Assembly (NCBI GenBank): GCA_037903475.1
Contig: JBAJFG010000583.1
Span: 310,001 to 374,000, forward strand
DNA length: 64,000 nucleotides
Origin: Ancylostoma caninum
Lineage: Eukaryota; Nematoda; Chromadorea; Rhabditida; Ancylostomatidae
Direction of reading: 5' to 3'
Below, one piece after another: positions 21,501 through 45,364 of the stretch. The translations under genes and the position numbers were made by a program. Below the pieces are notes generated by a model. That model was not told where the DNA came from and searched no databases. It was given only the letters and a program-made list of their open reading frames with translations. Numbering within the stretch: position 1 is the stretch's first letter; each line of letters begins with the position of its first letter.

Positions 21501-21527
21501 AATTGCGCCTCATCTCCCTCTAGAGCC

Positions 21528-21727
21528 ATGGGTAAGAGCAACCCTTTCATTTTGACTAATCCAGAAAAGAAGGCTTTTCCTGGAAGTGTCAAAAAGTTTG
21601 AGATTCGAAATTTCATACAGAAATTTCGAATGGGTAAGAGCAACCCTTTCATTTTGTAATCCAGAAAAGAAGGCTTTTCCTGGAAGTGTCAAAAAGTTTG
21701 AGATTCGAAATTTCATACAGACATGCA
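21528..21727 (+). repeat. 102-bp tandem duplication
   Basis: ATGGGTAAGAGCAACCC begins at 21528 and again at 21630. The two units, each ending in GATTCGAAATTTCATACAGA, are almost identical apart from a 2-bp gap (TTTTGACTAATCC versus TTTTGTAATCC). The junction AAATTTCGA links the copies. It is a recent local duplication. Confidence 0.85.
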
Positions 21728-23890: not shown

Positions 23891-24162
23891 AGTGAGTTCT
23901 GCCTAATTTTCCACTACTTGTAGACCTGCACTCTATACTTCTCCTATGATAACGTATAATACGCTTTTTATAGTCATAATCACTCTGGGAATTCCTTTTA
24001 TATTAATGTACGTTGAGTTTCTCATTGTCACATTCTCTCTGGAAACGGCATTCACCGTTTAAGTCTCTGAAGTGTCTCTTTTACAATTTGACCGGACTTC
24101 CTACTCACAAGAGCATCTATTTCGCATCTATTTTGGTTCCTGACACAGAATATAGCGTTTTT

Positions 24163-27100
24163 AAAGGCAGCGCCCACGGAAATTTTCGACCAGAAAAATT
24201 CAGCGTATTCCAACGGTATTGGAGGTGCTGAACATTCGCATGATGTCGAAACTTTCTGATAGCACCAAAAACACTGATTTTAGATGCTCCTGACCAAGTT
24301 GGGTGTAGCAGCTATGGTCAAGTTGCACGAGCCATGCGATGAGGATTGACATCAAAAGATCGATAATATCGTTTTTTTTTCACCAGTTGGATATTTGCGC
24401 AATCATTTATTTGTTCTAAACTACAGCCTTTCTACACCTCATCAGGATAGATAACCACTGGGAAATGTGTAGCACCTGGCAGAGAACTAACTGAGAAATC
24501 AAAACATCAGGAAATCCTCTAGTGGAGGAGAATTTGGAGAAAATTGAAATTTCAACGATAAGTAGTTTGAACACTTACCAAAGAGCTTCACATACCGTAA
24601 AATGCAAATGAGAAGTTCGAGCTAATATAAGTAGGGAAAAGTGTAAAAAATCATCAAAAGAACTCACGAAGACAAAAAATTACTGAATTTCACCGAGATC
24701 GCAACAAAACAGCTGTTTCTATTGCAATTCGCGCAACAAACAGCTAACGGAAAACTTGTCCAAATTTGCCGCTGGCACAAAGATGTACCAGTTACTGCAC
24801 TGAACGCAGTGGGTTTCCGTTGTTGTTACTGTATAGGAACCATTCAGTAGAGTGTTGACCGAATCGAATAATATTCGAATAATTATTCGAATATTCGAAT
24901 ATTCGTTTATTCGAAACATTCGAATATTCGAAAAATCAGAACATTCGGATTACTCGAATATTCGAATATTCGACGCTTTCAAAATATTCGTTTATTCGAA
25001 TATTCGAATACTCGACGCTTTCAAAATATTCGTTTATTCGAATATTCGAATATTCGATCACTCTTAATTATTCGATTACTCGAATATTCGCATATTCGGG
25101 GTGGATACATTTGAATATTAGATCATTCGAATAATCGAGCAGTCATTTTCAACAGCACCTTCGCTCTCATAATCATTCTCGAGACCCACCAACAAGCACC
25201 TACTGTCGCTAAATTTGTGATTGCTAAAATTTCACCCACACATCGCCAGTATGCGTTGCTGCCGTTGTCAGCACGCCACATTATCATTTCGGCGGTCTGA
25301 CAGCGGACTTTCTCCAGGCTCACCACACATAGATAATTTAATGACCGCGTTCAATTACTTGGTTGAGTGTAGAGTTGCCTACGCCAAATATTTGTACCGC
25401 GGTTCACCCGCACATTGTCTGAGAATACCTGCTGACGTAAACAGATCGCTACAATTTTGTGTCAAGTCTTGAGCCTTCAATTTGGTGAAAAAACTCCAGA
25501 AAAGACAAAGAGCTTACTGGGAATTTCCAATCTTTATGATACTAGTCTGCCATGGAGGCTCCACGCCTCCATTTCGAGTAATCCTACTTTTTCCAACCTC
25601 ATCCCGCAACCTTACCACCAGCATGCCACTGCAACTTCTGTGCACAAAATTTGGGAAATTAACTTCATTTATTTATACAATACAAAGCACGCGTTCTGAG
25701 AAACGATCTCGAGATGTTGGATGGAAACCCAGCAAAGCGATTAGCAAGTACGTACAAGTTTGACGTACTAGTTTGCTGAGTCAAAAACTCCTAAAAATGC
25801 TCCTATTTGTTTTCATTACCTAGAAAGAAACTCATGCTGACTTATCATATGGCTGTAACATTCTACGTATGTTGCTGTAGCAAAAAAAAACTTATGCAGA
25901 CTCATTACAGAAACGAGTGCAACACTATGTACATATCTTGAGGTTTCAGTGATTTGGGATTGGGTTAGTTCTTGCAATTGCTAGTAGCTCCAATACTGAA
26001 CCCGTCAGCTGAGAACTGGGCTCACTTGAAATTAGGTTCGAAACACCGGTTCTTAACTCTATTCAGTGTTGTCTATTTTATTAGACGTCGCGAAAGTTTC
26101 AGCCATTTTTGGACGTCTTTTCGGGTTAATTCTTTTTCTTCAATATAACAAGCATCTACACAATGTAAACGAAATCATTATTCTGCGCAAACATTAAATT
26201 TTGTTGGCAGCAGCTTTTAACAAATGGTTCCTTTGTACTTTCTGAGGAGGTAGTTCTCGTTTATGCAGTAGTTTTGGCAGTTATTGGCTTAAGAGTCAAC
26301 CACATTTCCTTGCGTGAATTACATAAAGAACCCTCTTCTCGTCACCGGTAACCAAGATGGCTAGCTGAGCGAAGCTCTGTTGAAAACTCAAAAAGTTTAT
26401 GCACGCACTCTACGCACTTGAAACTGGCGGTCACTCAGATCATGAGGTATCCACACGTCGTATTTCGTTGCCTCCCCGTGGAGAAGCAGGTAAAAAATAC
26501 TGTGTCGTGATGTCGTTGGAGGTCCTCTGCCAGGTCAAGGATACCACTACGCGGATTCTATTCAATCAGTTCCAGGAGGCGCTCGCTTTTGTTGCATCCC
26601 TTGAGTTGCTACATTTTCTGAATTATCAAACCAGGAGCAGCCGAACATGCTTGTAGTCAGTGACGATATTTTCAGTCATAATCGCAACGGAATGATAGGA
26701 GAAACTGGATATAGGTAGAGCATTGACTAACCCTTGTATAAGTTTTGGACAGGAAATTCCAAATCAATTTCGAAAAAATTAGCAACACACAAAAGTAAGT
26801 GATTTCGACTAAGTAAGTAGTAGTAAATAGTGGTAAAGTGAATAAGTAACTTTCGCGGCAACCTAATGAGTAATTGTTCTATTCAGAGAACTTCCCTTTG
26901 CATACTCAGCCGAAATAAATGTAGAGCAACTTCCCAAATATTCGAAATATTCGAATATTCGAAGCAGATGATCGAATATTCGAATAATTCGAATATTCGA
27001 GAGGTTGGAATATTCGAACTATTCGAATATTCGAATATTCGGAGACGTCGAAAAATTCGTTTACTCGAATATTCGAATATTCGGGCGTTTCAAAATATTC

Positions 27101-27267
27101 GTTTATTCGAATACTCGAATATTCGGCCATATCGAAATATTCGATTATTCGAATATTCGAATATTCGAAAAAATTTTTCGAATGCAACACTCTACCATTC
27201 AGACTCCAGTAAAGAATCAGGAAGTGTGAAAATCTGAGAAGCGAAAGTTTCCGTGGGTGCTGCCTCT
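24163..27267. mobile_element. TTAA-type element (copy of 30182-30935), split by a hAT-like insertion
   Basis: The left end is TTTAAAGGCAGCGCCCACGG at 24160-24179 and the right end is TTTCCGTGGGTGCTGCC at 27248-27264. Between them, 24166-24847 and 27195-27264 align along their length with the intact copy at 30186-30930. The flank has decayed on the right (TCTAA instead of TTTAA). No transposase is encoded. Confidence 0.8.
24848..27194. mobile_element. hAT-like non-autonomous element with ATTCGAATA subterminal arrays
   Basis: Terminal inverted repeats are TAGAGTGTTG (24848-24857) and CAACACTCTA (27185-27194). The 8 bp CCATTCAG flanks both ends (24840-24847 and 27195-27202), and the paralogous element at 30182-30935 shows the unfilled site (AACCAATCGGAGTG...), so the duplication is a true target-site duplication. 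An 8-bp target and TAG-type termini fit hAT. Both subterminal regions (about 24862-25135 and 26935-27180) are packed with ATTCGAATA-like palindromic units, including longer units containing TTTCAAAATATTCGTTTATT. The interior (25140-26930) shows no recognisable transposase. Confidence 0.8.
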
Positions 27268-28369
27268 AACTCTGTGTGTGCCCTAACAGAGTCTTATCTC
27301 AGAAATCGCTTCCGAGATTTTTATAGTGAGAAAGTCAGTGTGAACTGGCGTGTACAGTGGTATACATGACAGACCTCAAAAAGGGTGACCCTGTTTCTTA
27401 AGAGGCCACGGCTGATTCAGCAATTCCTTATGTTACTCGGAGAAATTATGGGTCAACACCAGAACTTACTCAAACCTAAGCTGTTGCCTACACGGATTCC
27501 AGGCCTCGCTGTTTCCAGACCAGGCTACGGTCAGGTTATATCTGATCAGATGACGGATATGAACTGTTGGCTGGCCAGGAAACGAGTATCGCACGAGGAA
27601 ATCGAGAGTTGAAGTTTTCTAATACTTTTCTATGAAGTCGAAAATTGCGCACTTTTGCAATCAGAAAGATTTTCTCTATATTAACGTATAAGTCGAAACC
27701 TGCCGCAAGTACGCATCACAGAGAATACTCGTAGTGAGACTGCTGTTTAGTCTTCGAGACCAGAACTATGGCAAAAGTTGGCTAAGCCCACGAAACCAGC
27801 GTGGAGTTGCTCGTCTCTGCGATTTTTCAAGGTAGATTTCCATGGGTTCCATGAGATATTACATTTTATAGAATCATGCCATTTGAAAGTGGGTAGACGT
27901 TTCATCCTGAACGAGAGCTGAAAAATAGTTCGAATAAAAAGACTAATAAACAGTCGATGAGCCGATATTTTGCCGAAAATTTTCGTCATATTTGTGTTCA
28001 GCGCATTGGAAAACCTCAGTGGGCGTGTGCTCAATATCCCCCGATCAAAAGCGTAAAACTCGATTAAGTCAATGGTTTAATCTATAATGTTATACAAAAC
28101 TGTAGATATATTTGTGTACAGCGTATAAACACCTCAATAGACATGTCATCAACGATTTCTGGACAAAATTGAGCAAAATTCAATGAAATCGGTGTGAACG
28201 GTAAAGCAGTCCACAGTTCTTGGCGGAAAGAGTGCTAAAATCTCCATCGCCCTTAGGAGTTATGGATTCAACGTTTGGTCGTGATTGGTATAAATAGGGC
28301 TCTGTAACATTTTCTTCTCTTGGGAATGCACTGTGATAAAAACATTAGTGGATGCCTCGAGTAGTCCCT

Positions 28370-28665
28370 CCGCTGTGGGCACGGATGGAGCAGAGGTAAA
28401 GCAGCGGACTGTGAAGCAACCGAAGAGCAATGGTAAATGATCGGTAGGTCAGTTCAGAAGCCACGACCGGTAGTGGGGGTGATAAGTTTTGTTCAAAAAC
28501 CCCCATTCCGGTACATGCGGAGGAAGGTACCGGGACTTGCGGAGGACTAACAATAAGTCGGGAATTGTGGTCTGTCACAGACCGGATCTCCTTACCAAGC
28601 CCCCCGGGAGCCCTGCAATAGCCCTACGCATCGGTGCGTTACTATGTCTGAGTCGGCGAGACAAT
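28370..28665 (+). repeat. tRNA-derived SINE candidate
   Basis: CACGGATGGAGCAGAGGTAAAGCAGCGGACTGTGAAG matches, over about 35 bp, the tRNA-like segment read in reverse near 7640-7678 (split here: the A-box part is GGATGGAGCAGAGGTAA). The body that follows contains ACCCCCATTCCGGTACATGC and CCAAGCCCCCCGGGAGCCC and has no coding motif. The 3' limit is uncertain. Confidence 0.4.
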
Positions 28666-29160
28666 GAGACGTCTTCGCAGCAAATTAAATGAACACCGAA
28701 GAGCTTTGGCTACCACGGCCTCCTATCCTAGTGAGAGTTTTTCCAGGCATCGAACCCCAAAACACACGCAGGAACCACCACCAGCGTTCGCGGTTCCAGC
28801 AGTTCCAGTAGTGTTCCACCGCTACTTAGCTGGGACGCTGGAAAGGAAAATGAGGGAGGAAAAAGAGATAAGAATACATGAGCCAGAGATAAATAAAGAG
28901 AGAAGTTAAGAGAAGTGTTGCGACTAATCACTTGATTCCTTCGGCTCTCGGGCACTCACTCGCTCTATACTTGCCACCCACTAGAGGAATGAGATCTATC
29001 CCCTTCTTGTCGCTTGTGCTCTGCAGCTTCAATAAGATTTGTATGTATAGATCAGCCGCATCGTTGGATTTAAAATCATTCATCATCACCTTTCCATACG
29101 GTATGTCGCTCTTTTGTTGTTTGCCTGTGATGATGATGATGTTGCATCGTTTTTGAAATA

Positions 29161-29585
29161 TTAACACGTTCGCGACACACGCGCTTTTGCGTACTTCGGA
29201 CCCGTGCTCGACCTGTTGAGCACGTGGTCCCACGCGGTCGCATTTTTTTCTTTCCTATATAAAAACTACGATTTTTCGCTAGAGTTATCCTTTCTTTTGT
29301 AGTTCTCGAAGATTCCTTTCATTTCTGTTGTCTAGTGATTTGTCGTTGTTAGAATTATTTTGGAAGTTTATTATTCTTCTATCTGTTATAGTAAGGAAAA
29401 TCTGATGAAAAAGTTTGAGAAAAGGTCTGTTTTGCCCACTGCATGTGTGATACTCTAGCATCTCTCTTACTACGCTACTACGAAAGAGTTAGCTAACTGC
29501 AGACATTTCGCAAAGATATGGTCAATTACTAATTACTAAATTGGTAGTGCACGACCGGTCGTGCACGCGGTCGCGAACGTGTTAA
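29161..29585. mobile_element. TTAA-flanked MITE at the 3' end of the RTE LINE
   Basis: The left ed reads TTAACACGTTCGCGAC and the right end its exact inverse GTCGCGAACGTGTTAA, so TTAA duplications flank a 12-bp terminal repeat CACGTTCGCGAC. The right subterminal part contains the perfect palindrome GTGCACGACCGGTCGTGCAC. No coding region is seen. The RTE tail begins immediately to the right. TTAA duplication is typical of piggyBac-type elements; assignment is inference. Confidence 0.7.
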
Positions 29586-30181
29586 GGTCTGACGAAGGCA
29601 TTAATTCTTCTTCATCTTTGCGTTTGTCCCGCTCGTTGGCGGAGTCCGCTTTCCTGATCTTCTGACGCCATTTAGCTCTATCGTGAGCCTGGTTTGGGTG
29701 GGCCCCACGTGCTTCAGATCCGCATGCAGTGTGTCCAGCGACCGTTGCTTCCTTTTGGTTGTTTTCCTGATACCTAGAGATCAAGGCCTACTTTGCAAAC
29801 GGTGTCATTGTTGGTGAGCGGCCGTACCATCTAAGGCGGGTTTAGTGGAGCTTGTTAACAATCGTGGCGATGCCGAACCGCTCTCGGATCTTTTCATTGC
29901 GTATGCGGTCCACACGCGTGATACCAGCCATCCATCGGAACGTCTTCATCTCCATCACACCCAGGCAGCGTTCCACTTCTTTGGTGGCCGGCCAGCATTT
30001 TGCACCATACAGTGCGACGGGTCTAATAACTGCTCGATACATCTTCAACTTGAAGCGATCCGAGATCTTCTTGTCGCACAGCACTCCTGTCACCGAGCGC
30101 TACTTCAACCATGTAGCGTTGATACGACTGACAACTTCATGGGCTAGGTTGCCATCGGTTGAGATTGTTGAGCCGAGATAT

Positions 30182-30935
30182 TTAAAGGCAGCACCCACGG
30201 AAATTTTCGACTTGAAAAAAGTCAACAAATCCCAAAGCTATCGAAGGTGCTGAACAATTGCATATACTCGGAACTTTCCGATAGCACCAAAAACCCTGTT
30301 TTCAGAAGCTCACGGTAAGGTTAGGTGCAGCAGGTGTGGTCGAGTTGCATGAGCTCTGGGATGGGGATTGACAGCAAAAGATCGATAACGTCTTTTTTCA
30401 CCGGTTGGATATTTGCGCTATCAGTTATTTGTTCCATACTGCAGGCTTTCCGTACCTCATTAGGAAAAATAACCATTGGAAATTGTGACGCACTTAGCAT
30501 ATATGTCATTTGAAAATCAAAACCTCGGGGAATCTTCTAATAGGAGGAAATTCGGAGAAAGTCGAAATTTCAACATAAAATAGTTTGAACTTTTGCTAAA
30601 CAGCTTTAATTTCTGTGAAATACAAATGAGAAAGCATTCCATCTAATAGAAGTAGCAAAAGTACAAAAAATCCTCAAAATGACTCACGAGGAGAGAAAAA
30701 CGACTGAATTTCACCAGAACCGCAGTGAAACAGCTGTTTCTGTTGCAATTCGAGCAACAAACAACTAACGGAAAACTCGTCCAAATTGACCGGTGGCACA
30801 AAGATGTACCAGTTACTGCGATGAGCGCAGTTGGTTTTCGTTGTTGTTATTATAAAGAAACCAATCGGAGTGCGCTAAAGTACCAGAAAGTGTGAAAATC
30901 TGAGGAGCGAAAGTTTCCGTGGGTGCTGCCTTTAA
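30182..30935. mobile_element. TTAA-type element A, intact ends
   Basis: Terminal inverted repeats AGGCAGCACCCACGGAAA (30186-30203, and inverted at about 30914-30931) flank about 715 bp without a transposase. TTAA lies at each edge (30182-30185 and 30932-30935). The copy at 24163-27267 is homologous along its length. It interrupts the RTE coding frame together with element B. The piggyBac-like assignment rests on the TTAA target and is inference. Confidence 0.8.
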
Positions 30936-31402
30936 AGGCAGCAGGAGCTGAAATCCTCGACTCCGAGCTGAGCTGTGGGTGATGAAGTACAGACTCAGCA
31001 CATCATAAATGTGAAACGAACACAGACAATTATGGCTTACCTGCAGAGAAAATGGAACATTCGTCGCGAACACGCCTGGCCGTGTTCGTGCGCGGACGAG
31101 TTTTCCCCGGCGCAAAAAGCCATTGCGATGCGTGTTTGGCGCAAAAGGAAAACGAAATGCATTCAATTCACAGGGTTTCATGGCGGGACTCGGCCAAAAC
31201 CACGCGCCGCAATGGCTTTCGCGCCGGGGAAAACTCGTCCGCGCACGAACACGGCCAGGCGTGTTCGCGACGAATGTTCCATTTTCTCTGCAGGTAAGCC
31301 ATCATTGTCTGTGTTCGCTTCACATTTATGATGTGCTGAGTCTGTACTTCATCACCCACAGCTCAGCTCGGAGTCGAGGACCTCAGCTCCTGCTGCCTTT
31401 AA
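30932..31402. mobile_element. TTAA-type element B, fold-back palindrome
   Basis: Two arms of about 190-200 bp, 30936-31135 and about 31200-31398, are near-perfect inverted copies. Each starts at the outside with AGGCAGCAGGAGCTGA, passes CTCGACTCCGAGCTGAGCTG and CTTACCTGCAGAGAAAATGG, and reaches GCGCGGACGAGTTTTCCCC near the middle. The spacer is about 65 bp. TTAA lies at both edges (30932-30935, shared with element A, and 31399-31402). There is no protein; transcription would give a long hairpin. Confidence 0.85.
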
Positions 31403-33699
31403 AGAAGTCAGTTCTCGGAAGGTCATTGCCATCAACCTAAATGGTGGCGGGCTCATTCATATCGGTCGTCATATACTCAGTCTTCTTGACACTGAGCCGA
31501 AGACCAAACCGCGCTAGACGTTCGCTCCAGGCCTGTGTCTGTCGTTCAAGGTCCTCCTTTTGTTCAGATGTGAGCATGACGTCATCTGCGTATAGCAGAG
31601 TTCATGGTGTCGGCCTCTGAAGGTCTCTCGTAGTAGCGTCCATGACGACGATGAAGAGAAGCTGTGAGAGGGCTGATCCTTGATGAAAGATGGGAAATTG
31701 TGCTGACGTGCTCGCGGCCGCCTGCACTCGACTCCTCGGGTCCGCATAGAGAATTCTAACCCACTCAATGGGCTCCTCTGGAATGCCGTGCCACCATACC
31801 GGATGACATCATGTGGCAGGTTTTCTCCAGATCGAGAAATGCTAGATGCAGTAGCTTCTCCTTCTCTCGATGTTTCTCGATTATCAGTCGAGCTGCATGG
31901 ATTGCATCCATAGTTCCGCAGTTGACTACGAACCCACACTGGTTCACGGTAACTCGGATGATGTCGCGTATTCGGTGGTCGTTCGAATATCTTCATACTG
32001 TGAGACAATATACGTATTGGCCGATAGTTTGAGCAATCCGCAGGGCTGCTTCTCTTCTTCCAGATCGGTATGGTGGTACTCCTCTGCCACCCCACAGGGA
32101 TCTTCTTCTCTACGATAATCTGGTTGAGGAACAACGTCAGCCATTCAGCTGAGTTCCAGTGTCTCGACTTCCATAGTTCCACCGCTACGTCATCAGGACC
32201 CGTCGCTTTTCCTGGTTTCATCCGCTTTAGCGCAGCCATGGTTTCATGCACGGTGATCGGCTAAATAGGACCGTAAGCTGGCGGTAATTGTGGAATGTAT
32301 GAGAGGACCGTGTTCGTCGTTCCCTCCGTAGGACTTTTCGACCTCTTCGACTTGTCGCTCGCCAATCGGTAGATGAGGCGTTCCGCGCCATCTTTCTCAT
32401 CTAGCTTCTTGCTAGCATTGTCGTAGTGCTCAGCCTTCGTGACAGCCACAGCCTTCTTTGCTGCTTTCTTCGCTTCTAGATACCTTTGCCAGTTATCATC
32501 CGTCTTGCTACCGAGGAACACGTGGTAGAGGCGTTTCTTTTCGCGCACCTTCAGTTTCACTTCATCCATCTATAGCCACGCCTATCTGTCAATCCTCCGG
32601 CGACCTGGTTTAGTCGTGTCAAGCTCTAAACATGCCACACCTTCAATTACTCGGGTTGCGTTCTTCCAGGTCTCATCGACGGTTGTGACCGGCGGCAACT
32701 TGATGGCGGAAGTTACTGTGGCTTCCTTCTCCTTCAACCGCCACCAGTTGATTCGTGCCGGTCCGCACTGTTCGTCACGCATCCTCCTTGGCGGCATGAG
32801 TTTCGCGGTTGAGATAAGCGGACGATGTTGCGCGGCACGGTCTCGTAAGGTACAACTTTCGCATCGGTAACTATTAATAGCTTTTGATCGCTGTGTCGTA
32901 CGAGAACGAAGTCGATCTGGGTTTTCACGGTGCCACTGTAGAAGGAGACGAGGTGAGAAGAACGCTTTAGGAACTTTGTATTCATTATGACGAGATTGTG
33001 AGAGTCAGCATATTCCAGGATGCGCTCGCCATCTTCACTCCTTGTCCCGTAGCCAAAGCCTCTATGGCATCTGTAACCGTCTTTTGCCACTCCTACGTGG
33101 CCATTTAGATCTCTTGCGACGACGATTGTGTCTTCCTGTGGTACTTCCGCGGTCTTCTCGTCAAGCAGCATCCAGAATTCATCTTTGACCTGGTCAGAAC
33201 AGCCTGTCTGTGGTGCGTACGCCGGGAAGAAGGGAAGGCGTTGTTTGCAGTGGTGATGACAACCGTCAAGAGGCGGTCATCGAAACGCTTCACCTCGGCT
33301 ATCGAGTCACGGAAGCGTTGAGAGACCACTACGCCCACACCGTTCCTGGTCTTCGGACTACCGTTGTAGACTACCTTGGAGCCGTGACCTATCTCCTTTG
33401 ACTTGGCACCAGACCGCCTCGTTTTTTGCACAGCGCCCAGTTCAGTTCGAGTTCGACGATGCTCGAGTGCTGCTGCCAGTTCACCCTGTCAACGTGCCGA
33501 CGTTCAGTCGCAATGCGCGTCTTGGCTACGTTGTGATCCTTAACGATTCGCATGCCTCCTCCCCTGATGCCACCGTTCGAGAAACAACGGGACCCTCGCA
33601 TATTTTTCACACTAACCGAGCTCCGAAAGTGCGCGTCGATTCCCGTGGACGCCGTAGCTTTTATCTTAGAATCATTTTTTGTCATTGATCATATGGGTA

Positions 33700-33800
33700 T
33701 GACTGGGGTCTTCCTGAACCGGCCTGTCCGCTCGAATACGGGACGCAGTGGCGGGATTCGAACCTGAGACATCGTGGGGACATAGTGCTCTGAAGGAGCG
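33700..33800 (-). repeat. tRNA-like segment with intact B box
   Basis: On the reverse strand GGTTCGAATCCCGCC is a perfect Pol III B box, preceded by GGCGCTCCTTCAGAGCACTATG, which is only loosely like the D arm and anticodon arm. No full cloverleaf closes, so it is probably the head of a tRNA-derived SINE or a tRNA pseudogene. It lies just outside the 5' end of the RTE relic. Confidence 0.4.
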
Positions 33801-34131
33801 CCAAACGCCGAAATCTAATTGTGATAAAAGAAAAATAAGAACAGAGTCTCCGCATATCAAGATTAGTTAACAACGAATTTTTCTTTTTCCTATTTTACAA
33901 CGAATGCCCCTACTTAGAAATTTAGTTACAGAGTAGATTTTCTTTGATTTTCTTTGTTTTTCGAATTGTTTCTTTGTGTTGGAATCGTTTTAAAACTTGT
34001 TTATTTATTTACTTGTTTATTTGTCAGCGCCGTAGTGGTCAGTTACTTTAAGTTTTTCAATATTCGAAACAAAACAAAACTTCTACTACAAAAAACCGGA
34101 GCTTCAGAGAAATTATGAAGATCGTGTTCAG

Positions 34132-37100
34132 GTTTCTGCTTGCCCTCGTCTTGCAATGAAGGCGCTGTGAGATCGCTCGTCGACCGCTTCCTGGATGAGT
34201 TCTTAGTCGCATCTGACAAAGTTGAGCCGATGTTTGCCCTAGAGGGAATCAGTTGCCATGGAACAGATGAGCACTGGCCCTCAGTGAAGGTTAGTTTAGG
34301 AAAAGCTAGCTTTTATCTCTTGCAAATTGTTGTGTGCGGTCTTCAGCGACTTCTGGCAGCTGTCTGTACAGCAGTACTAGTACTATTACTTGTCGCTACA
34401 ATAGTCGATGTCTACGTGGTGAACAGGGAGTCCGCAAGCGTCATCGAAAGCGTCAACGATGGGTGCACCATAGCAGGGAGCGAGCTGACTGTTTGTAAGA
34501 ATTCTCGCTGATTCCGACTTCCAACATTATATTAGGTTGGTGCAAAAATAATGCGCGTTTTCATGCTTTTGATTCCGAACCTCATAACTCCTTTCAAAAT
34601 CACTGTTTTTCAATAGGCTTAGAACTATTGTAATCCGCAAATCCTTAGCAATAAGATAGATGTTCTCAGACTACTGTGCAATTCTGACAGGACCTTCTAG
34701 AATCGACAAACTTCCGGAGGGCAGTTTTGGTATCACTTTGGTCTCTGAGAAAATTCTCCCGGAAGAAGTCGTCCAGGTTTTCGGGGAAGCCATAGTCGGT
34801 GAGCGAGAAGCTTGCTGATTATGATATAGGAGTCCGAGCTTCCTAGCTCAGTTGCTCGAACCTGTGAAGAATCTGTCGTGCAGGGTGTGCCTGGACGGTA
34901 CCGTGTAGGAGTGAAGAATCCATTTTATTGAGCAACGCTGGGGTCACACCGTGAAGTTTCTAATTTATTTCATTTACGTCTTGAAAACATTTCCAGATTA
35001 GGAAGAATAAATGAGCTGCAGTGAGCAATTTTGGCAGCAGTTCACCACAAAGTCGCCGTGACCTTATTTTGGTGTTGCTTCGGTTTCTGGGAGCATTTCG
35101 GTGCATGTTCCTCGTCCAACTGTTAAGCAAGGCACCTCATTTTGTCGAAGAGGGTCTATACTTCATTTCTAATCATTAAGCGACCGACTGTTTGATCGCA
35201 ATTTTTTTCACTACAAAGGTGCGAAACACACCTCTCAACGAGGATCAATGTGGTACTCATTCAGTGCGCGACATTAACTCGTCGAGCTTTTTCATCCTCC
35301 CATTTTTACTGAAGGGAGGGATGGTCTGACGACAATCACCGGCAAACCGAATATGTTGTTTTGGATGGGTGCTGTTTGATAAATGTCATCAGTTGGGGGT
35401 CGCAAACCCCAGGAAGACCTGTGCGACATTCCTTACTTTCGAAGCAAGGCACACTAAGCCGAAAAATCCGGGAGCAGCTCGGGGGAATCTATTCGCTCAC
35501 ACGTCCTTCGCCAAAACTACGGTGGTATTCTGAGCGATTAATGCTGCGATGCCGTCGAGTATCAGCTCGCTGAAAAGAGTTTGGCAAAAAACTTGTTTTA
35601 GCGCCTTTCGTTCCACAACTAAAAATTCGCCGAAAACATGAACTTCGCTCAAAATGCATAAAATAGTTAAAAAGGCCATGAAATTTTACAAAACCATGTG
35701 CAACTTCTCATACAGATGATAAGAAACACCGGAAGTTTTCTGCACCGAAGATGAAGCAGCGAAAAACGCGCATTATTTTTGCACCAACCTAATAGTATTA
35801 GGTTGTTGCGAAATTACATAATTGCCGAAGTGGACACACCAGTTCAAAGTGTTTTAACTCGGCTCAAACACAATTTTTTTCATCGCTTCAGCAGCCGTTC
35901 AAGTCAGGAGATCCTCCCTGACAATTCTATGAGGATTGCATGCCTCCACTACTAAAACCGAGATCACAAGGATCCGCAAACTTTTGGAAGGCGATTTCAG
36001 CGTGCTCCAGATCAGCAATCTGCTGCTGTCGCGACATTGCATCTGGAGCTCGGAAAAAAGACGTACAGTGGAGTAATGGTCTGAGGAATGAGGTCAATGA
36101 ATGAGAGTCTTGATGCCTTTTTACATCAGTTTTGTCGTGTGAATTTTGGAGAGTGAGGCTTAACGTTACTTTGGAAAAAGGAGAAATCAGTTTTTGTTCG
36201 CCACTGCCGACCACGTCTATAGCAGATTTGCTGGTATCAACTCGAAATTACAATGCCAGGACTCTGATGTTAGTGCTTGAGTAGCTTGGAGAAGACTGTA
36301 GTGGATCACACTCTTACAGCATCACCACACTCCTGACACAACCTCTCTAGTGCGAAGACTTGATTTAGAAAAAGTTGGAGATGGGGGGAAGTGTCTACCG
36401 AAACGAATTCACGTTTCTTTTTATCGCACAGCGACCGAGCTCCATTGATAGCTGTTACGCGGTGTAGAAATGGGTAGTTTTTGAGGCGAGAAATCAAGTT
36501 AGAAAAGATGACACAGCGGGTGAGACGCTGGTCATCTGTCCGATCGTGGGGTGTTCACTTCCGCACCTTTCTAGTCATGTCGATTGAAGTCAAATGTTTT
36601 GAAACTGTAGCATAGTGAGCCCCCATCCCTGCCCTCAAAGTCCAAATGGTTGGAGCCGGATTAGGTTCCAAGACTCTTCTCAACGCTTCATCGTCAGAGA
36701 ACAACCTGTGATCACCACCATGGTTGCTTTGGGGATCAAAATCGACGGAAGAAAAATTTGCGACCGAATAGCTCACTGCCCATTTGGAAGGCGATTCGAA
36801 GCGAAAACAAATGCAAGATTACCGCAGGCATCTGAGAAAGAGTGACCGACTTTGAAGTCATGGACCATAATCACCCGAAAATCACGTCGCTCTTGATTTG
36901 TTCGGGACTTCACAAAAACCCTCAGAAAAGAGCTAGCCAGAATATTCAAGCAGCATTCGGAAGAGCAGAAAAAGCTCTATCAGGAGGTCACATAAATTTG
37001 GCTGAATTTGCTCAAATCGGGCAGAAGAGAAAGGTTCAAGTGAGTATACCCCAAAACGGCAATTAATTTCGCAACAACCTGATATTTGCTAGAATACACA

Positions 37101-40100
37101 CATGAACGAGACTCCACTGGTTCAAGCGTACTCGCACGCACTACGTCATGTCCTTTTTGCCATCATGATTGTCTGAGCACATTCTATTAATATGACCGTT
37201 GTCTTTCTCGATCCTGTGATATCGCAAGCGGGTCCGGACCACTGAAGTTTGTCGTACATATGCGGCTAGTTTTGAGTTTAACTCCCAGAAAAAACCGCAT
37301 GTAGATAGTAGAAATCTTCATGGCTAAGTCGATCCTGCCAACTGTTGATGGCAATTACTATCAATTTCGAGCTCAAAATCTCCAGTAGTGTCTTTTCTGT
37401 CCTACCTCTTCCGTTAAGCTTTCGACGGAAATGATGCACTGAGAAGGATAAATTGCTTCAACGCGCCGTCAATAGCGCTCACCTATAAACGTGTGCTCGA
37501 CCTGCCACTGTCATTAATGAGACCTGCAATAGTGCTTGATATTGTAAGTTATTCTCTGCAACTCACCTTTACTGTTCCTAGAATCATGAAAGCCACTTGT
37601 GACAGCAGTGATGTCATTTCAGCTGTGCTCCTTCAGCTTACGAGTCTCGTTGAATCACCTCTCCAGAAACACGGCCAGAGAGATTCCTTGTCTCAATGGC
37701 ATCAAAGTCCTGAGCACTATATGGGTGAGGTTTTGGTACAGCTCTAATTTGAGAAAAGTCTCTTAGACGCGCGTTATTTCATTAAACGAGAAAAATCATA
37801 TTTCACTGGATTTCTGTTGGATGGTCCTATATGAAATCCTCATTCGACTGCATTATCAGTATGTGGTGTCTCCACTTCCGGAAAAGTCGACAGTTCCTAT
37901 CAATATAATCTCTGCCCTGGCCCGATATTAGACGAGCATTTTCAAAGATTGAGAGAGGCATCGCTCAAATTTCGAGCAAATTTTCATCAATTTTCGCATA
38001 CTCCGTTGACGTGTTCCACTCTCTCCTAAGAATTACACAAGGTGCCGCAGGTGTAGGGCAGAGGTTTATTTATTTATTTATTTATTTGCATGCACATAAG
38101 CGCACTGTACAATGGTGAATCACGTGCACGGAGAACTAAATGAGAAGCTCTTCAGAGACAGTGAAAAAAGTCCAAAAATATTCGAAGGTGTACCCCTGGT
38201 GCCTGAGGTATGAGTGGCAGTACGTTTGAAAATTTCTGATCAGCAAAATCAGTGAGGCTTCAATGCATTGCGGCCAGAACTGCTCCCCAGAAAGGATATT
38301 GACACACCGAATATACTTTAAGCCTGAGCAATTCAATTTCTTTGTGATACTTCTGCTCAAGTGGGATAAAAATCGTAGGTTTCTCCTCTGTCAGTTTCTC
38401 ACAGTATCCATTTTCTCCTTGTCTCATGATTTGCTAGCAGAAAATAAGGTATTGAATTAATAAAACAGTAGATAGTAGGAAAATCAGAACGGGCATCAGG
38501 GAACCAAATGTCGGAGATGACTTTAACTACATAGAGAGCCTCTCGTATTCAGGAAAACCCTAATAAAAGCTAAGGGCAGTCTGAGACAGAAGCGAAAGAC
38601 AGTTTATTATGGGTGTGTTGGTGCCATTCGGTAATTGACGAAGCCATCTAGCACCTCAGATGAACAACGTACTGAAAACCCTAATATTGAATCTGCTGTC
38701 AATTTTCTCGTCGTGCAGTGTAAACGTACCTGAGCAGCCATTACATGACCTAAAGATCCATTATTTACTAGCCCTATATTTGGAATTTATTCGTAAAACC
38801 TTAAAGCAAAAAACGAGATCGTTGGAAGTGCGTCTTTTGAGAAGGCTTCCAGTTTGAATTTTTTGAGTCTACTATTATAAGCAGGAATAAGATGGTAGCG
38901 ATAGGGATTGTGTAAACATCTATCAAGAGCAATCTTGATAGGCTTGCTGGAAGATTACTATCTGGTTTTTTCGAGCTTATGTGTAGTTTAGAACATCCGT
39001 GATATTTCCATGTCTAAATCGATAAGTGTTAAGGTGATACTCGGTCACTCATGTTTGTTCACACTATCATACATGGACAACATCACCACATTCCTCCCTG
39101 AATTGGCGAAGTCACAATGGCTCGCACCGGTCCTCCTCAATTCATCGCTGGCCGTCGATTCGTTCCTCTTCATCTCCGGAGCTGTCGTGGCGTTCACTGT
39201 ACGTAAGCGCATTCTCTTCAGGTATGTTTGAAAACTTCATGCTGCTTACCATCCTTCACTCCTCTCGCATGTGATTTCCAGAGAAAGTGACAAGATTTCA
39301 TTTTTTCGAGTTGTCCACCGCTTGTTTATGTTCTATTTTCACCGTCTCTCTCGCCTGTGGCCAGCATTGCTGATGACGACATTGTTTGTCCGCTATGTGT
39401 ATAACCATCTTGGTGATGGTCCAATGTGGTCAACTCGAGGTAAATTCCGGAAGCACAGTTAGTAAGGGAATTTGGCATTTCGTCCCTGAAGCATGTAGAT
39501 CCATTTACAGTGTCTCTTTCGAAGTAGATTCGTATAACTGGATGATCTATTTTATGAATCACCCTAAACGTATCCGATAAATGAATAATAATTGGCTGAG
39601 TAAATAAATAAACGAATAGATAAATAAGTGGATAAAAAATTTATTACAACAATTGCAGGTGTGTTTGGTACAACGTGTTCATCTGAAAATATTTGGCATC
39701 ATTTATTATTTGTTTCGAACTGGTTTCCATCACACTGTCTTCCATGGCTCTGGTACACTGCGGTCGACTTCCAACTTTACCTTGTTTGTTTTGTTTTTAG
39801 TCTTCTTAGGATTTATGGTTGAGTTCCAAAAAAAAAAGACGAAAACACGACCCAAAACAATGCACTATTAGTATGTGCAAGCTGCCAATTCTACTGGTCC
39901 TGTCGACAACCGAAAGCCTGACCAACTCATGTAGCAGCTATAAAGACTGTTAGAGTGCCAAGCAGCGGCCTGTTCAGATGCAGCTAACCATAATAGGCTA
40001 CTTTTCATTGACTTATCCATATCTACAGTGATGGTCAATCGTTATTGCACTACAGGAAACTTGGCCGCGCCGTGCCGTCAACGCTGCGCAAAAAACCAGC

Positions 40101-43100
40101 TGAGCGCTGGTAGGGTTTGCCGCGATTGTTGCTTTTTTCCATAGCTTCCATGGCTGGTTATGTGTGGTAACACTTACATAGACTTAAGGGCAATTCATAC
40201 TGGATGCGTACGACTGACGAGCGTGCGTCTATATGATGAAGAATAGAGCCCAGTCGCATAGCAATCGCATCGCAGTCGCAGCTCATACGCACGCGTTTAC
40301 GGCCTCGCGGCGGCCGCGAGTTCTTTTCATTGAGGATGTACATGCCGTGTTGACCGGTCTTCATGGAAAATCTCTTGCAAATGGATGCGTGCGACTGATG
40401 CGCGACTGACGCACGCAGCTAGTATAAATTACCCTTTCCTCTGTTGTATACGAAAGCAAAAATCCCGACAAGGGCAGTTAATTATAGCGCCCAGTAAGTC
40501 GGCCGCGCAGCGAAGGTAGCGCGAAGCAGCCCCGTTTTATGTGGTGCAGTAACCACTGAGCATCACTGTAAAATTGGAGCACCCCTAGATCCACCGGGGA
40601 AATTACTCGAATAGCTTGTCTGTGTTCCGACCACCCCACTTTTGACTATTCAACGTGTGTGGAGACGTACAAAACGCTGGCTCGGGAAGATAAGCACTTC
40701 AGATGTCTATCGGGATCAAAGTTACCATAGCTTCTACAACAATTCATTCAAAGTTGCACTTAGTGGGTGCTAATAACAGGCATAAAGCGCAAGCAACAGA
40801 ATGAGGTAGCATCCGCTGAAATTCTCGAGTCCAAGTTAAGGCCCTACTGGCAAAGCGCACTGGCACCGCATCATCGATGTTATACGAACAAAACAAATAA
40901 TGACTTACCTATGAACAATCGCAGTCGTGAACCCAGCCCTGTTGCTCGTGCTTCCACAGCGACGACGCGCCAGCTAACAAAGACTCGTCACATTCACTAG
41001 CGCGTGACCGCGCCCTTGTAGCGGGACTCACAAGTGTCAATGGAGCGCGACAAGACCCACGGAAGAGGACATTCCAATTTCGCGGACTTCCCATAAGTTT
41101 CTCGCAATTCATTGTCAGATATGAGCTCTAGTACTCTAAAAACCGCAAAATCAAGGAAAATATCAGGCACAAAGATTTCAGTGGGTCCTGCCTTTAAATG
41201 TTGCCCCTGTACCCAACCAGGGACTTTCGGTAACAACTATGCTTATGTCTGTCCTCGTTATCAACAGAGGAGAAGAGGTCGAGCCTTCCCCACTTGATAC
41301 CTGTTGATAGCGCACTTGATCTCAGCAATGATAGATGCTGAATCTGTCATAATAATCTAACATCTAAGGCGAACTTAATGAATAACAATCACTCTCAGCA
41401 TACCATTTCCTAAACAGGATCTACCGAGACTCAATTGGCTGCCAATGATGATTATTTATCCCCAACCTCGACATTATTTTGCACAAGAAGTCCTCTATTT
41501 AGGTGTCGCCATTTTTTCTTGTTCTCCTTCCACGATTTCGCCGCTGTGCATTCGTCATCGGAGTCGTGCTTGTCATTGGCTCAATGGTCTACTCAAGTTC
41601 TGTTTACGCGGTTCACTCGTGAGGAGCATAACCTTGCCGTGATTCCTAACTCCACCGTTATTTCCACCTCTAGACTTCCTACGAACATCTTCACAACCGC
41701 GCTGAGCCTACAGAACCTTGATACAGCTGAATCGACATTCCGTCTGCTGTACGCTTCTCCAGTCGCGAGAAGCTCTCCCTTCATTATAGGTATGTATACA
41801 TACTCCTTATTTCCCGCCGCATTGAATAGGATATCACTTTAACATTGCAGGTCTCCTCACTGGATGGACAGTCTCTGTTCGGAAGCAGAAGCGACCGAGT
41901 GCAGGCATTTGTCTATTTTTGAAAGTCATCGCCGTCTCTTTCCTCTATTTCGCACTGTTTGCTCCGTTCTGTAAGGAGGTTAGCCATGCTTTCGACTTCC
42001 ATACTGTTGAAAAGGAGGATTATTCCCTATTGGTCAGGGTTGGGCCTATTTTCCCTGAGGTGAGGAAATTGTATTCACCGTCCCACCTCAAAATCGTTTT
42101 TTTTTCCTTATTTCCAACGAAAAAATCTCCAGGAGCGCTGATCACGATAGAACACGTGACTCCGTGTAAGTTGCTGAAAAAAGTCCGTTCTCGAACCCCA
42201 ATTCTTAGTGAGCTTGTGAGCGGTGCTGGCGACGATATTAAGGCGATCACGATAACGTATATCATTGTGATACGAAGCTCCTCAAGATTCTTTTCATGTG
42301 AAAACATTGAAACCTTCGAACAGATAAGAATCAAAACATCTTCAGCCGCATGCGGAGTTTAGTCTACCTTGGATACGTAAGGGGTTGCTCGTCAAAAGGA
42401 CAGATGTTTAAAGAAACCTCACTTCAACCTCAAAAAAAAAACTTCATATCAGAGCCTCCCGTATTCATCTCATCCAGAATTTTTAGAGTCAGCTTAATTT
42501 TTGTGATAAGAAAATGAACTTTTTATAATGAAATTCATGGGCTTCACAGGCAGTGCCTCACCTCAGAAATTGCTCTCGAGATTTGTACAGTAATAGTATC
42601 GTGAGCTGCCCAGAGCGATTGCACAAGTGAAATGTCTTGTAACCATCGGGAACCCAGGATTGTAAAGGATTGTTTCCCACATTCTATTGGCCGAGTGTGA
42701 GAAATGATCGGTGCCCCATCGAAAAGAAACCGTGATTACTGCGTTGTTTTTTTTTCGACATGATTACACGGACTATTGGCACAGAGCAGAATTGGTTGGG
42801 CTCTCGTTAGAAGGTTTACTAACCATTTTGAAGTTTACCACGTTCATCACTGGAAATAGCTCATCGAGTTGGTCTAGAATCTATCAAAACCTCTGAATCG
42901 AAATGAGTTTACACTCTGCCTTTGCCATAATTTTTATGATAATCTCAACTTGTGGTTTCCCCTTCCCCTCGCCAATCTAGGTAGTTATTGTTCCAATTTT
43001 TACGATATTAAACTGTCATCTTGTTTCGGTCTTTACAATAAATACTTATAGGGCCCACGGTCCTACATTCATGCTGTCCTGCACCGGACCACGTGGTCAG

Positions 43101-44759
43101 TAGCACTCGCTATTCTTGTATGGCTCTGCGAAAATGGACTAGCACCGGAGATTTCTTATCTGCTATCCAGTCATCGGCTTCTGCTTTTTTCGAGGTGATG
43201 CTTCCAGAATGACTTCTTCAAAGGGCTTCTCCGCTGTGATTTTCACGTTGCTGTTTCACGGAGCTGAATCTTTTTTTAGGCTGTCCTTTGGCGTCTTTTT
43301 GGCGCACGAGCCAATTCTTCTGTTCTACATCTGGACATCCAGACAAGCACATACGCCTCATTCGTTCATGCACTTTGTAGTGTTGACGCTGACCGTGTTC
43401 ATCCTGTCATTGATTGTCGCCTTGATCATCACAATTACCATAGGTACAGTGCGTTTCATAAACAAGTAGGCACTCCAAATTTGTAGGTATCACAATATTT
43501 CGGGAAGCGCCGATTTTCGGAAAGTCCCCCTAAGTTTGTTGAATTTAACATGTCACAAAACCCCTTGTCCGTTTCATAAATGTGTAGACACTACCAGTAA
43601 GTTTGAATTACTTGATATTACTCTCACCCAAGAGTATAAAAACGAAGGTATGAGTAGTGGAACCTTTATAGCGTCGTGGTGCCAGGCTTACGTCTTTCTC
43701 TTGTGGAGCACAAGGTATAGATCTCCACGCTGCTGGTTTTTCAAATCGTGCCATAGCCGAGCACTTTCGACGCTCAGCCAGTCGTGTCAATCGATTTCTG
43801 AAGGATCTCCCCTTATGGTCGGAGGAAGTCTCCTGGGCGCCCACAGTTGCTGTCTGTCTAGGATAGAAGGCGAGTTGCCAGCGAATCAGGTACCCAACGG
43901 GAAGTCCTGAAAAGTCCCCAGAATCATGGACAGACCTAGAGTGGCCCGTCTCCAAGTCCTGAAAAGTCCCCAGAATCATGGACAGACATAGAGTGGCCCG
44001 TCTCCATTCGCGTATTCCAATGTAAGCGCGAACTGATCAAGAGTGATATTCTATGACGAGAAAAAAGTGGAATCTGAACGGATGCGACTCTGCACATAGT
44101 TACTGAAGGGATTTACGGGAAGAGCCTCTCCTCTTCTCGTGCCGAAATTTTGAAGATTATCGACGCGGGATGCCTTCTGTAGGTCTACAAAGCAGTAGCT
44201 GGCGTCACTTCTTGTCGCATGGACGCAGCAGAATATCAGAATGTGTGACGCATGCATCTCTGGCCGTTTCTGAGCGGCGGAAGACGACGAATGTACACTT
44301 TTCAACAGCACAACGCCACAGTCCATGTGGCCAGCTCTACAAGAAGTTGGTTTGATCCGCCCTAATGGACTGGCCGGGCGTACCCCAGATGAATAGGCTA
44401 TATCTATGAAACGGTCTGATACCGTTCTGACATAGATTTGATACGGTGGAGCAGGATTTCGAGCTTGTGAAATGAAATTTCCGGAGAAGGGGTTCTGTGA
44501 CATGGCAAATTCAACAGAGTTGGTGGAAGGTCCCAAAAATCGGTGCAATATTGTGACAGCCAAAAGTTTGGAGGTGCCTACATATTTATGAAACGCACTG
44601 TAGTTCTTGAATTCGTTGCATTGCTTTGATATCAACATAACGCCCAATGTTTCAGAAATTCCAATCTTGTCTATGGAAAGGAAGCTGCTCAAAACAACGG
44701 ATCGAGGGTATGAAGAAGAAGATCATCCTGAGGAGGAACAGGGGTTCGTGCGGCTCTAG
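34132..44759 (+). CDS. NRF-6-like membrane acyltransferase (acyltransferase family 3), 5' end not found
   Basis: Multi-pass membrane protein of the nose-resistant-to-fluoxetine type, thought to transfer acyl groups. Exons: 34132-34289 (CLPSSCNEGAVRSLVDRFL), 34347-34494 (membrane helix AVLVLLLVATIVDVYVV), 39034-39221 (VILGHS with the family histidine, AVDSFLFISGAVVAF), 39282-39439 (HRLSRLWPALL, LGDGPMW), 39659-39783 (WHHLLFVSNWFP, LPWLWYTAVDFQLYL), 41503-41618, 41674-41789 (SPVARSSPFIIG), 41851-41978, 43052-43194 (TWSVALAILVWLCENG), 43280-43443 (RLSFGVFLAHEP) and 44656-44759 (EIPILSMERKLL, stop). All joins from 39034 onward agree in phase. The exon or exons bridging 34494 (phase 1) and 39034 were not found, and the N-terminal NRF domain lies further upstream or is lost. 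Introns hold two mariners and a Tc3-like element. An alternative tail skips the stop through donor 44710 to 44786-44939 and 45233-45274. Confidence 0.88.
34532..35792 (-). mobile_element. mariner relic M1
   Basis: Inverted ends of about 30 bp, TTAGGTTGGTGCAAAAATAA at 34532 and its inverse ending at 35792, are flanked by TA (34530-34531 and 35793-35794). On the reverse strand degraded mariner transposase text remains: KPKQHQNKVTATLWWTAAK near 35050-35120 (family KpxxxxKVM..WW) and further down FLRDQSDTKTALRKFVDS. The transposase is broken by stops. It lies in an intron of the acyltransferase gene. Confidence 0.88.
35798..37082. mobile_element. mariner-like element M2
   Basis: Ends are TTAGGTTGTTGCGAAATTA at 35798 and its inverse TAATTTCGCAACAACCTGA ending at 37082, flanked by TA (35796-35797 and 37083-37084). 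The ends are clearly a different family from M1. The interior has only unrecognised open frames. A second, partial copy of about 330 bp lies at 10905-11235. Only the bases TAGTA lie between M1 and M2. Confidence 0.75.
37085..39033. other. Intron of the acyltransferase gene, missing exon expected here
   Basis: The family needs one more exon between the membrane helix at 34494 and VILGH at 39034. Candidate segments such as 38402-38450 (SIFSLSHDLLAEN) and 38680-38750 (LLSIFSSCSVN) faintly recall the expected FS...N pattern but lack convincing splice phase. A (TTTA)n run lies at about 38068-38090. Confidence 0.35.
40795..41208. mobile_element. Degenerate member of the TTAA element A/B family
   Basis: The right end CAGTGGGTCCTGCCTTTAAA (41189-41208) matches the inverted terminal repeat of element A, and the left part GCTGAAATTCTCGAGTCC (about 40816) matches the outer arm of element B (GCTGAAATCCTCGACTCC). 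The left TTAA is not preserved. It lies in the acyltransferase intron between 39783 and 41503. Confidence 0.45.
43447..44600 (+). mobile_element. Tc3-like transposon relic at a splice donor
   Basis: The inverted ends CAGTGCGTTTCATAAA (43447 and, inverted, ending at 44600) extend for about 33 bp through GTAGGCAC; a further partial copy of the end (CGTTTCATAAATGTGTAGACAC) lies internally near 43571, like the internal binding sites of Tc3. TA flanks both sides (43445-43446 and 44601-44602). Inside, HFRRSASRVNRFLKDLPLW recalls the helix-turn-helix linker and VIFYDEKKVE the second acidic block of Tc3 transposase, with many stops. A tandem duplication of about 55 bp lies at 43907-44010. Confidence 0.85.
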
Positions 44760-44785
44760 ACGGCTATTTTAGAAATTGTTTGCAG

Positions 44786-45355
44786 CTTTCAAAGATTTTA
44801 CCTGCACAGGGAGGAACGCAACAATTTACTGAAGGAGCCCAATTACCACGAAAAAGCCACTTGTTGGCTGCGCTCGCCTGAATTTCAGGAGGCTAGCGCA
44901 CCTCCATTCCAGGAAGCTGATGCGCCTAATTTCCAAGAGGTGTGTTCCTTCCCGTCGAACCCGGTCATGCCACAGAACATCGGTCTTTCCTGCGGTCCTT
45001 CTTCTTCTTATGTAAAGCAGGCATTATCCGTCATCTTTTCAGTATCGATTACCAGCAAGTGGAATCCCCAATGTCATGGAGTGTGCATCAACGTTTTCTA
45101 TGGATTCCTTTTTCTGGTGCGGAAAAGAGGGGTAACTGTGCTTCAAATGAGTGCTCTGATCTAATCATTCCTGTCTGATTCAATCGTTCAAATGACTATC
45201 TCAGCAATAGGCCATCAGCACTTCTTTTTTAGGCATCAGGAAAACTGGAGCAGAGAACTTTCACTCGTAGATAAGTTCGACAGAGATGCGGAGGAGCCGC
45301 TGATCCCACAAAAGCCTATTGATCTGGAAAAGTGGGAGAGGTCACTTTTCAGTAC
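44786..45355 (+). CDS. Possible alternative C-terminal exons of the acyltransferase
   Basis: If the last exon ends at donor GTATGA (44710), phase 2 leads into 44786-44939, which reads on as FQRFYLHREERNNLLKEP and then a short repeat FQEASAP, FQEADAP, FQE. The phase-0 join to 45233 continues with ASGK and stops at 45274, extending the repeat pattern. The other open frame from 45233 (HQENWSRELSLVDKFD to LEKWERSLFSTC, stop near 45362) also looks protein-like but needs another phase. Either is inferred; they could instead be untranslated. Confidence 0.35.
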
Positions 45356-45364
45356 TTGCTGATG

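What the first reader, a model, noticed from the sequence alone, without database searches (positions are those of the whole stretch)
43440..44605. A Tc3-like element inserted exactly on a splice donor and re-supplies it
The exon of the acyltransferase gene ends at 43443 and the intron starts GTACAGTG. The TA at 43445-43446 is the element's target duplication, and its terminal CAGTG follows. Removing the element leaves GTAGTTCTTG, so the ancestral donor was GTAGTT and the insertion split it at +2/+3. The element's own end now provides GTACAGT, so splicing may have survived.
Basis: partly seen in the sequence, partly recalled or inferred. Interest (0 to 1): 0.75.

Follow-up and report, generated by a model that had tools for sequence, protein, structure and literature searches.

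The report
Dead transposon sitting on splice donor
In the dog hookworm, a dead Tc3-like jumping gene sits exactly on the start signal of an intron in an intact acyltransferase gene; its duplicated target letters keep the essential GT, so the intron can probably still be spliced, but no RNA data were available to prove it.

Summary
A 1,154-bp Tc3-like element (43447-44600) with ~125-bp inverted repeats and a TA duplication begins at +4 of an intron of a nose-resistant-to-fluoxetine/OAC-type acyltransferase gene. The species is evidently Ancylostoma caninum: protein ANCCAN_20250 equals the spliced window over all its 170 residues. The gene is intact (20 inferred exons, 887 aa), and joining 43443 to 44656 restores a motif conserved in nematode relatives. 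The ancestral intron was 56 nt and older than the insertion. The interpretation needs correcting: the element does not supply the GT. G is host and TA is target duplication, so GTA survives automatically; only +4 onward (CAGTG) is new. In the canonical register this donor is weaker than the ancestral GTAGTT. If C+4 bulges, U1 can pair with GUA(C)AGUG, the best predicted U1 duplex of 93 GT sites in exon 16 and the intron. A second GTAGTT is re-created at the right end, in a poor exon context. Against easy splicing, the repeats fold over the donor, and cryptic donors inside the element score higher by matrix. I think splicing at 43443/44656 survives (~0.65). No RNA, empty allele or genome-wide copies could be tested.

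The parts
20378..45362 (+). Whole acyltransferase gene (nrf-6/OAC type), ATG to stop, 20 inferred exons, 887 aa
43280..43443 (+). Exon 16, ends ...ATT ACC ATA G (phase 1)
   Evidence: aligned to relatives
43444..44655 (+). Present intron 16, 1,212 nt; ancestral length 56 nt without element and one TA
43444..43449 (+). Present donor GTACAG: G host, TA target duplication, CAG element end
   Evidence: scores
43445..43446 (+). Left copy of TA target duplication (+2/+3 of the intron)
43447..44600 (+). Tc3-like element, 1,154 bp, degenerate
   Evidence: TIRs; HTH_23 E 6.7e-5 on the stop-free piece 43672-43866; colinear Tc3-transposase-like pieces (recalled query)
43447..43571 (+). Left terminal inverted repeat, about 125 bp
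44482..44600 (-). Right terminal inverted repeat, about 119 bp
43672..43866 (+). Relic of the transposase DNA-binding helix-turn-helix
   Evidence: HTH_23 6.7e-5, HTH_38 1.9e-4, both below the curated cut-offs
44007..44353 (+). Relic of the DDE domain in broken frames, with stops
44601..44602 (+). Right copy of TA target duplication
44600..44605 (+). Re-created ancestral donor GTAGTT at the right junction (last G of element + TA + GTT), exon context ACT
   Evidence: matrix score -0.06 and U1 -1.1 kcal/mol
44656..44743 (+). Exon 17, starts AA of the split GAA codon; gives ...TITI|EIPILSMERKLLK
43597..43604 (+). Matrix-strong cryptic donor inside the element, CCA|GTAAGTTT
   Evidence: second of 93 GT sites by matrix; U1 -5.6

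Best explanation
A dead Tc3-like DNA transposon inserted at the TA of an existing GTA splice donor (intron 16 of an OAC/nrf-6-type acyltransferase gene of Ancylostoma caninum). Because TA is duplicated, exon-AG|GTA stayed intact on the left side, and the element's terminal CAGTG replaced +4 to +8. Shown by sequence: element, duplication, intact gene, exact position, conserved junction in relatives. Inferred: the junction 43443/44656 is still the main splice, with U1 pairing across exon AG|GUA and, with C+4 bulged, AGUG of the element end; the element is removed inside the now 1.2-kb intron. The insertion is probably near-neutral rather than an adaptation.
For: Anatomy. The species' own public protein ANCCAN_20250 equals the spliced exons over 170 of 170 residues across this junction. 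Of 12 proteins read (P0001-P0009, P0018-P0020), 10 run through the junction as I-E-[IV]-P; P0009 ends before it; P0003 (ANCCEY_12324) lacks exon 16; the other 8 hits, P0010-P0017, were not aligned. The intron is ancestral: ANCCEY_12324 has INVKPNIS directly before EIPILS, resembling the window's intron end read in that frame (INITPNVS), while the other A. ceylanicum model Y032_0296g1684 has TLTI there. The gene is open through all four exons downstream. Left donor U1 duplex -7.5 kcal/mol, best of 93 GT sites in 43290-44650; empty site -6.2; 4 of 18 other donors of the gene are stronger. +5G is also missing in 3 of those 18, all three with G at -1, as here.
Against: No transcript was seen. ANCCAN_20250 is a predicted protein, and its contig may lack the element. 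By the matrix from 18 inferred donors the left donor scores 1.06: below the empty site's 2.95, below 17 of 18 leave-one-out scores, and rank 36 of 93 GT sites; donors inside the element score up to 6.29. The bulged pairing is not rare: 164 of 1,024 random 5-mers after TAG|GTA reach -7.5 (14.8% weighted), and the duplex program was free to choose its register at each site. The minimum-energy fold pairs 43445-43462 with the right repeat, and even with only 60 to 900 nt downstream G+1 is predicted about 97% paired, though A+3 and C+4 are mostly open.
Confidence: 0.65

Rival explanations
1. The insertion weakened or broke the intron: donors inside the element (43597, 43648, 43449) or retention are used. 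With 43597, 43648 or retention the reading frame stops at TAG 43467-43469, and most mRNA is degraded because three introns lie downstream. The allele is a hypomorph or null, perhaps not fixed.
For: 43648 and 43597 score 6.29 and 6.12 against 1.06 for 43444. The read-through frame ends ...TITIGTVRFINK*. The donor is buried in the repeat-repeat stem, duplex -143.8 kcal/mol.
Against: Gene otherwise intact, 81% to A. ceylanicum. U1 duplex ranks 43444 first of 93, with 43648 and 43597 at -5.7 and -5.6. The public protein uses 43443/44656. An allele that arose recently would still look intact, so intactness alone does not exclude this.
Confidence: 0.25
2. The element acts as its own intron: donor 43449 (ACA|GTGCGTTT, inside the repeat) to acceptor 44603 (CACTGTAG), turning the old 56-nt intron into an in-frame exon that adds 19 codons (GTFLNSLHCFDINITPNVS).
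For: The pair is in frame and open; it scored third of the pairs listed for this intron (93 against 122 for 43444-44655). The donor matrix score 4.03 exceeds that of 43444. Tc1 is known to be spliced from C. elegans pre-mRNA (title of Rushforth and Anderson 1996 seen in reference lists; details recalled).
Against: U1 duplex only -1.6. The acceptor, aacgcactgtag, has no run of T. The 10 proteins that span the junction lack such an insert. The normal acceptor TTTCAG is 52 nt downstream.
Confidence: 0.06
3. The intron itself was created by the element (introner-like intron gain).
For: Donors taken from the target duplication are known for introners (PMC9860276, passages).
Against: Removing the element leaves a complete 56-nt GT-AG intron. 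A. ceylanicum appears to have homologous noncoding sequence just before EIP.
Confidence: 0.02
4. Assembly or haplotype artefact: the element is joined to this site wrongly.
For: The public A. caninum protein does not tell whether its contig holds the element; the genome search did not complete (and eleven earlier calls).
Against: TA on both sides, matching repeats and a clean intron remainder are what transposition gives, not misassembly.
Confidence: 0.02

Closest known systems
Tc3 / Tc1-mariner superfamily DNA transposons of nematodes
   Same: TA duplication, CAGTG...CACTG ends (recalled as typical of Tc1/Tc3), long inverted repeats with an inner copy of the end motif (43567-43596), HTH and DDE relics
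   Different: 1,154 bp, frames broken, no match found after residue 245 of the recalled Tc3 transposase except chance-level pieces, and the place of an Asp recalled as catalytic reads His (QQHNATVHV): non-autonomous
Tc1 insertions removed by splicing in C. elegans (Rushforth and Anderson 1996; title seen in reference lists; text not held)
   Same: A Tc1-family element carried within pre-mRNA and removed by the spliceosome
   Different: As recalled, those are mostly insertions spliced with sites in or near the element; here an existing intron's own donor core survives by target duplication
Introners (PMC9860276, passages read)
   Same: Some families recruit the 5' splice site from the target duplication
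   Different: They create new introns in many copies; here one old intron was enlarged
Bulged-register 5' splice sites (PMC9311317, passages read; Roca 2012 cited there, not held)
   Same: U1 pairs with a bulged nucleotide in the donor
   Different: Here only a computed duplex, and the downstream part of the pairing comes from a transposon end
bandit, mariner-like element of A. caninum (PMC2041818, passages read)
   Same: TA-targeting element of the same species
   Different: 1,285 bp, 32-bp perfect repeats, mariner transposase; this element has about 125-bp repeats and Tc3-like relics

Membership tests
Tc1/mariner superfamily | TA target-site duplication | tested here: met
   43445-43446 and 44601-44602
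Tc1/mariner superfamily | Terminal inverted repeats | tested here: met
   About 125 bp; 25 of 27 outer and 72 of 91 inner aligned positions match
Tc1/mariner superfamily | Transposase with HTH and DDE domains | tested here: inconclusive
   Relics only: HTH_23 6.7e-5 below the curated cut-off, no DDE family in Pfam, but DDE pieces align to a recalled Tc3 transposase
Tc3 clade | Transposase closer to Tc3 than to Tc1 or mariner | tested here: inconclusive
Tc3 clade | Long repeats with an inner transposase site | tested here: met
   Inner copy of the end motif at 43567-43596; that this marks Tc3, and that it binds transposase, is recalled
Active/autonomous element | Open transposase frame | tested here: not met
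   Stops and frame changes
OAC/nrf-6-type acyltransferase | Acyl_transf_3 domain and NRF N-terminal domain | tested here: met
   PF01757 E 1.7e-17 on a draft of exons 9-17; orthologue P0018, aligned end to end, carries PF01757 and PF20146; PF20146 not scanned on the window model
Introner | New introns created in many copies | tested here: not met
   A 56-nt intron pre-existed; copy number could not be tested because the genome search was unreachable
Functional 5' splice site | Use in RNA | not testable with these tools
   No transcript data

The most novel reading that the evidence does not exclude
Tc1/Tc3-type ends (TACAGTG) are pre-adapted to act as 5' splice sites whenever they land on a G-TA donor: target duplication keeps AG|GUA, and the element end adds (C)AGUG, which pairs with U1 when C+4 bulges. 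Insertions on GTA donors would then be tolerated more than insertions elsewhere in the donor, and hookworm genomes should hold an excess of such donor-riding elements, possibly with the repeat stem bringing donor and acceptor close together.
Probability: 0.15. Interest if true: 0.6.

Novelty: new member of a known kind. Interest (0 to 1): 0.35.

Why it matters
It is a clean single case of a general rule: a TA-duplicating transposon cannot destroy the GT of a GTA donor, and its own end then decides the rest of the splice site. It gives a natural minigene pair (GTAGTT against GTACAG with a buried donor) to test whether bulged U1 pairing or RNA structure dominates in a nematode. It also gives a full 887-residue model for a gene of which the one A. 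caninum record found here covers 170 residues.

Tried and rejected
Looked for orthologous or allelic DNA without the element: none was reachable. One viral-contig scan for an exact 22-base end motif gave 0 matches. Solved-structure searches of the transposase pieces gave no Tc3 match. Pfam on the DDE pieces gave nothing. Rfam on the window at gathering cut-offs gave 0 matches. Dating by repeat divergence was rejected: about 18% of aligned repeat positions differ (97 of 118 match; gaps left out), but whether the arms were identical at insertion is unknown, and the outer/inner difference is not significant (Fisher p 0.15). The 440-aa draft scanned therefore has 27 extra residues there, and at its end it reads four residues into the next intron before a stop. 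For the intron after exon 17 the best-scoring acceptor was 44794 (98 against 97); I took 44809 because the public A. caninum protein reads that way. Paper searches near the exact case showed no matching report among the titles and abstract openings listed: 20 of 63, 11 of 11, 0, 15 of 34, 12 of 906, 2 of 2. Most subscription papers are not held, so this is weak evidence of absence.

Full report
WHAT IS THERE. The window reads ATAG|GTACAGTGCG at 43440-43453. The inverted-repeat search finds arms 43445-43473 and 44574-44602 (29 nt, 93% complementary), followed inwards by arms of 27 and 65 nt. Together they make a repeat of about 125 bp; in a gapped alignment 97 of 118 aligned positions match, 25 of 27 at the outer end. 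The element is therefore 43447-44600 (CAGTG...CACTG, 1,154 bp), flanked by TA at 43445-43446 and 44601-44602. The finding's end, 44605, includes three host bases. A second motif like the repeat end lies inside at 43567-43596, and a partial relative of the same family lies at 9242-9330 (73%).

THE ELEMENT. The stop-free piece 43672-43866 matches HTH_23 (E 6.7e-5) and HTH_38 (1.9e-4), both under the curated cut-offs. The pieces hold stops and frame changes, nothing beyond chance level was found after residue 245, and the place of an Asp recalled as catalytic reads His. Pfam and PDB sequence searches found no DDE or Tc3 match. So: a dead Tc3-like element; the clade label rests partly on recall.

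THE GENE AND SPECIES. A first search returned 17 proteins, nematode acyltransferases at the top; a second found the A. ceylanicum orthologue Y032_0296g1684 (P0018); a third found a 170-aa A. caninum protein, ANCCAN_20250 (P0020). Enumerating GT-AG pairs against P0018 gave 19 introns. The 20 exons from 20378 to 45362 give one open frame of 887 aa, 81% identical to P0018. P0020 is contained exactly in the spliced window (170 of 170 residues) and crosses 43443|44656, so the window is evidently A. caninum and that public record uses the same junction. The record is a prediction; whether its contig carries the element is unknown.

THE JUNCTION. Joining 43443 to 44656 (phase 1) gives TITI|EIPILSMERKLLK. 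Of 12 proteins read (P0001-P0009, P0018-P0020), 10 run through this place as I-E-[IV]-P; P0009 ends before it; P0003 (ANCCEY_12324) lacks exon 16 and instead has INVKPNIS before EIPILS. P0010-P0017 were not aligned. P0003 also lacks exons 11-13, so it is a rough model, but the window's intron end, read in that frame, is INITPNVS, which suggests that P0003 has read the end of the homologous A. ceylanicum intron as exon. Hence the intron is probably older than the element. Independently, without element and one TA the window itself keeps a complete 56-nt intron, GTAGTTCTTG...TTTCAG.

WHO SUPPLIES THE DONOR. The G at 43444 is host and TA is the target duplication, so any TA-duplicating element entering a GTA donor leaves GTA. 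The element supplies +4 onward. Because the element ends in G, its right edge re-creates GTAGTT at 44600-44605, but behind ACT instead of TAG.

IS IT A GOOD DONOR? With a matrix from 18 other inferred donors of this gene, the present donor scores 1.06, the empty site 2.95, the right copy -0.06. 17 of 18 leave-one-out scores exceed 1.06, and the present donor ranks 36 of 93 GT sites in 43290-44650 (exon 16 and the intron), where 43648 (6.29) and 43597 (6.12) lead. By U1 duplex energy the picture turns round: present -7.5 kcal/mol with C+4 bulged and AGUG paired, empty site -6.2, right copy -1.1; the present donor ranks first of 93, and 4 of the 18 other donors are stronger. The program chose its register freely at each site. 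The value is not improbable by chance: 164 of 1,024 random 5-mers after TAG|GTA do as well (14.8% weighted). Bulged registers at 5' splice sites are described in PMC9311317 (passages), which also says they go with more alternative 5' splice-site selection.

STRUCTURE. The minimum-energy RNA fold pairs 43445-43462 with 44585-44602, so +2 onward of the donor lies in the repeat stem (repeat duplex -143.8 kcal/mol). With only 60-900 nt of downstream RNA, G+1 is predicted unpaired with probability about 0.03, while A+3 and C+4 are mostly open. This speaks against easy U1 access, unless U1 binds early or the fold is not formed in vivo; the same stem would bring donor and acceptor close together.

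CONSEQUENCE IF IT FAILS. Read-through gives ...TITIGTVRFINK* with TAG at 43467-43469, upstream of three further introns, so the message would be a likely decay target (inference). An alternative in-frame splice, 43449-44603, would remove the element almost exactly and add 19 codons, but its U1 duplex is -1.6.

VERDICT. Real, exact and well explained: an ordinary dead transposon with an unlucky, or lucky, landing place. 7 of 1,241 TA sites in this gene are donor TAs, so such cases should occur where TA-targeting elements are common (inference). Continued splicing is likely (0.65) but unproven. Introners that take their 5' splice site from the target duplication (PMC9860276, passages) and spliced Tc1 insertions (title only) are the nearest known phenomena.

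Noticed in passing
window 44600-44605: The right end of the element re-creates the ancestral donor hexamer GTAGTT, because the element's last base is G.
   Followed up: yes
window 43449-44603: An in-frame alternative intron bounded by the element's own ends would add 19 codons made mostly of the old intron.
   Followed up: partly
window 20378-45362: The A. caninum protein ANCCAN_20250 covers only the last 170 of 887 residues of this gene; a 13-kb intron (21105-34131) lies in the gene. Other A. caninum records for the rest were not sought.
   Followed up: partly
P0003 (ANCCEY_12324): One of two A. ceylanicum gene models lacks exons 11-13 and 16 and seems to read an intron end as exon; the cause (weak donor, rough prediction or something else) is unknown.
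   Followed up: no
window 11249-13222: Long tandem array (self-matches at steps of about 54 bases) of about 2 kb.
   Followed up: no
window 50606-53155: About 2.55-kb self-complementary stretch, 78% identical to its own reverse complement.
   Followed up: no
window 30930-31404: Palindromic stretch, 89% identical to its own reverse complement, inside the 13-kb intron.
   Followed up: no
window 9242-9330: Partial relative (73%) of the same Tc3-like family.
   Followed up: partly
window 10289-11211 and 35853-36821: Two inverted copies (67%) of another unidentified repeat; the second lies in an intron of the same gene.
   Followed up: no
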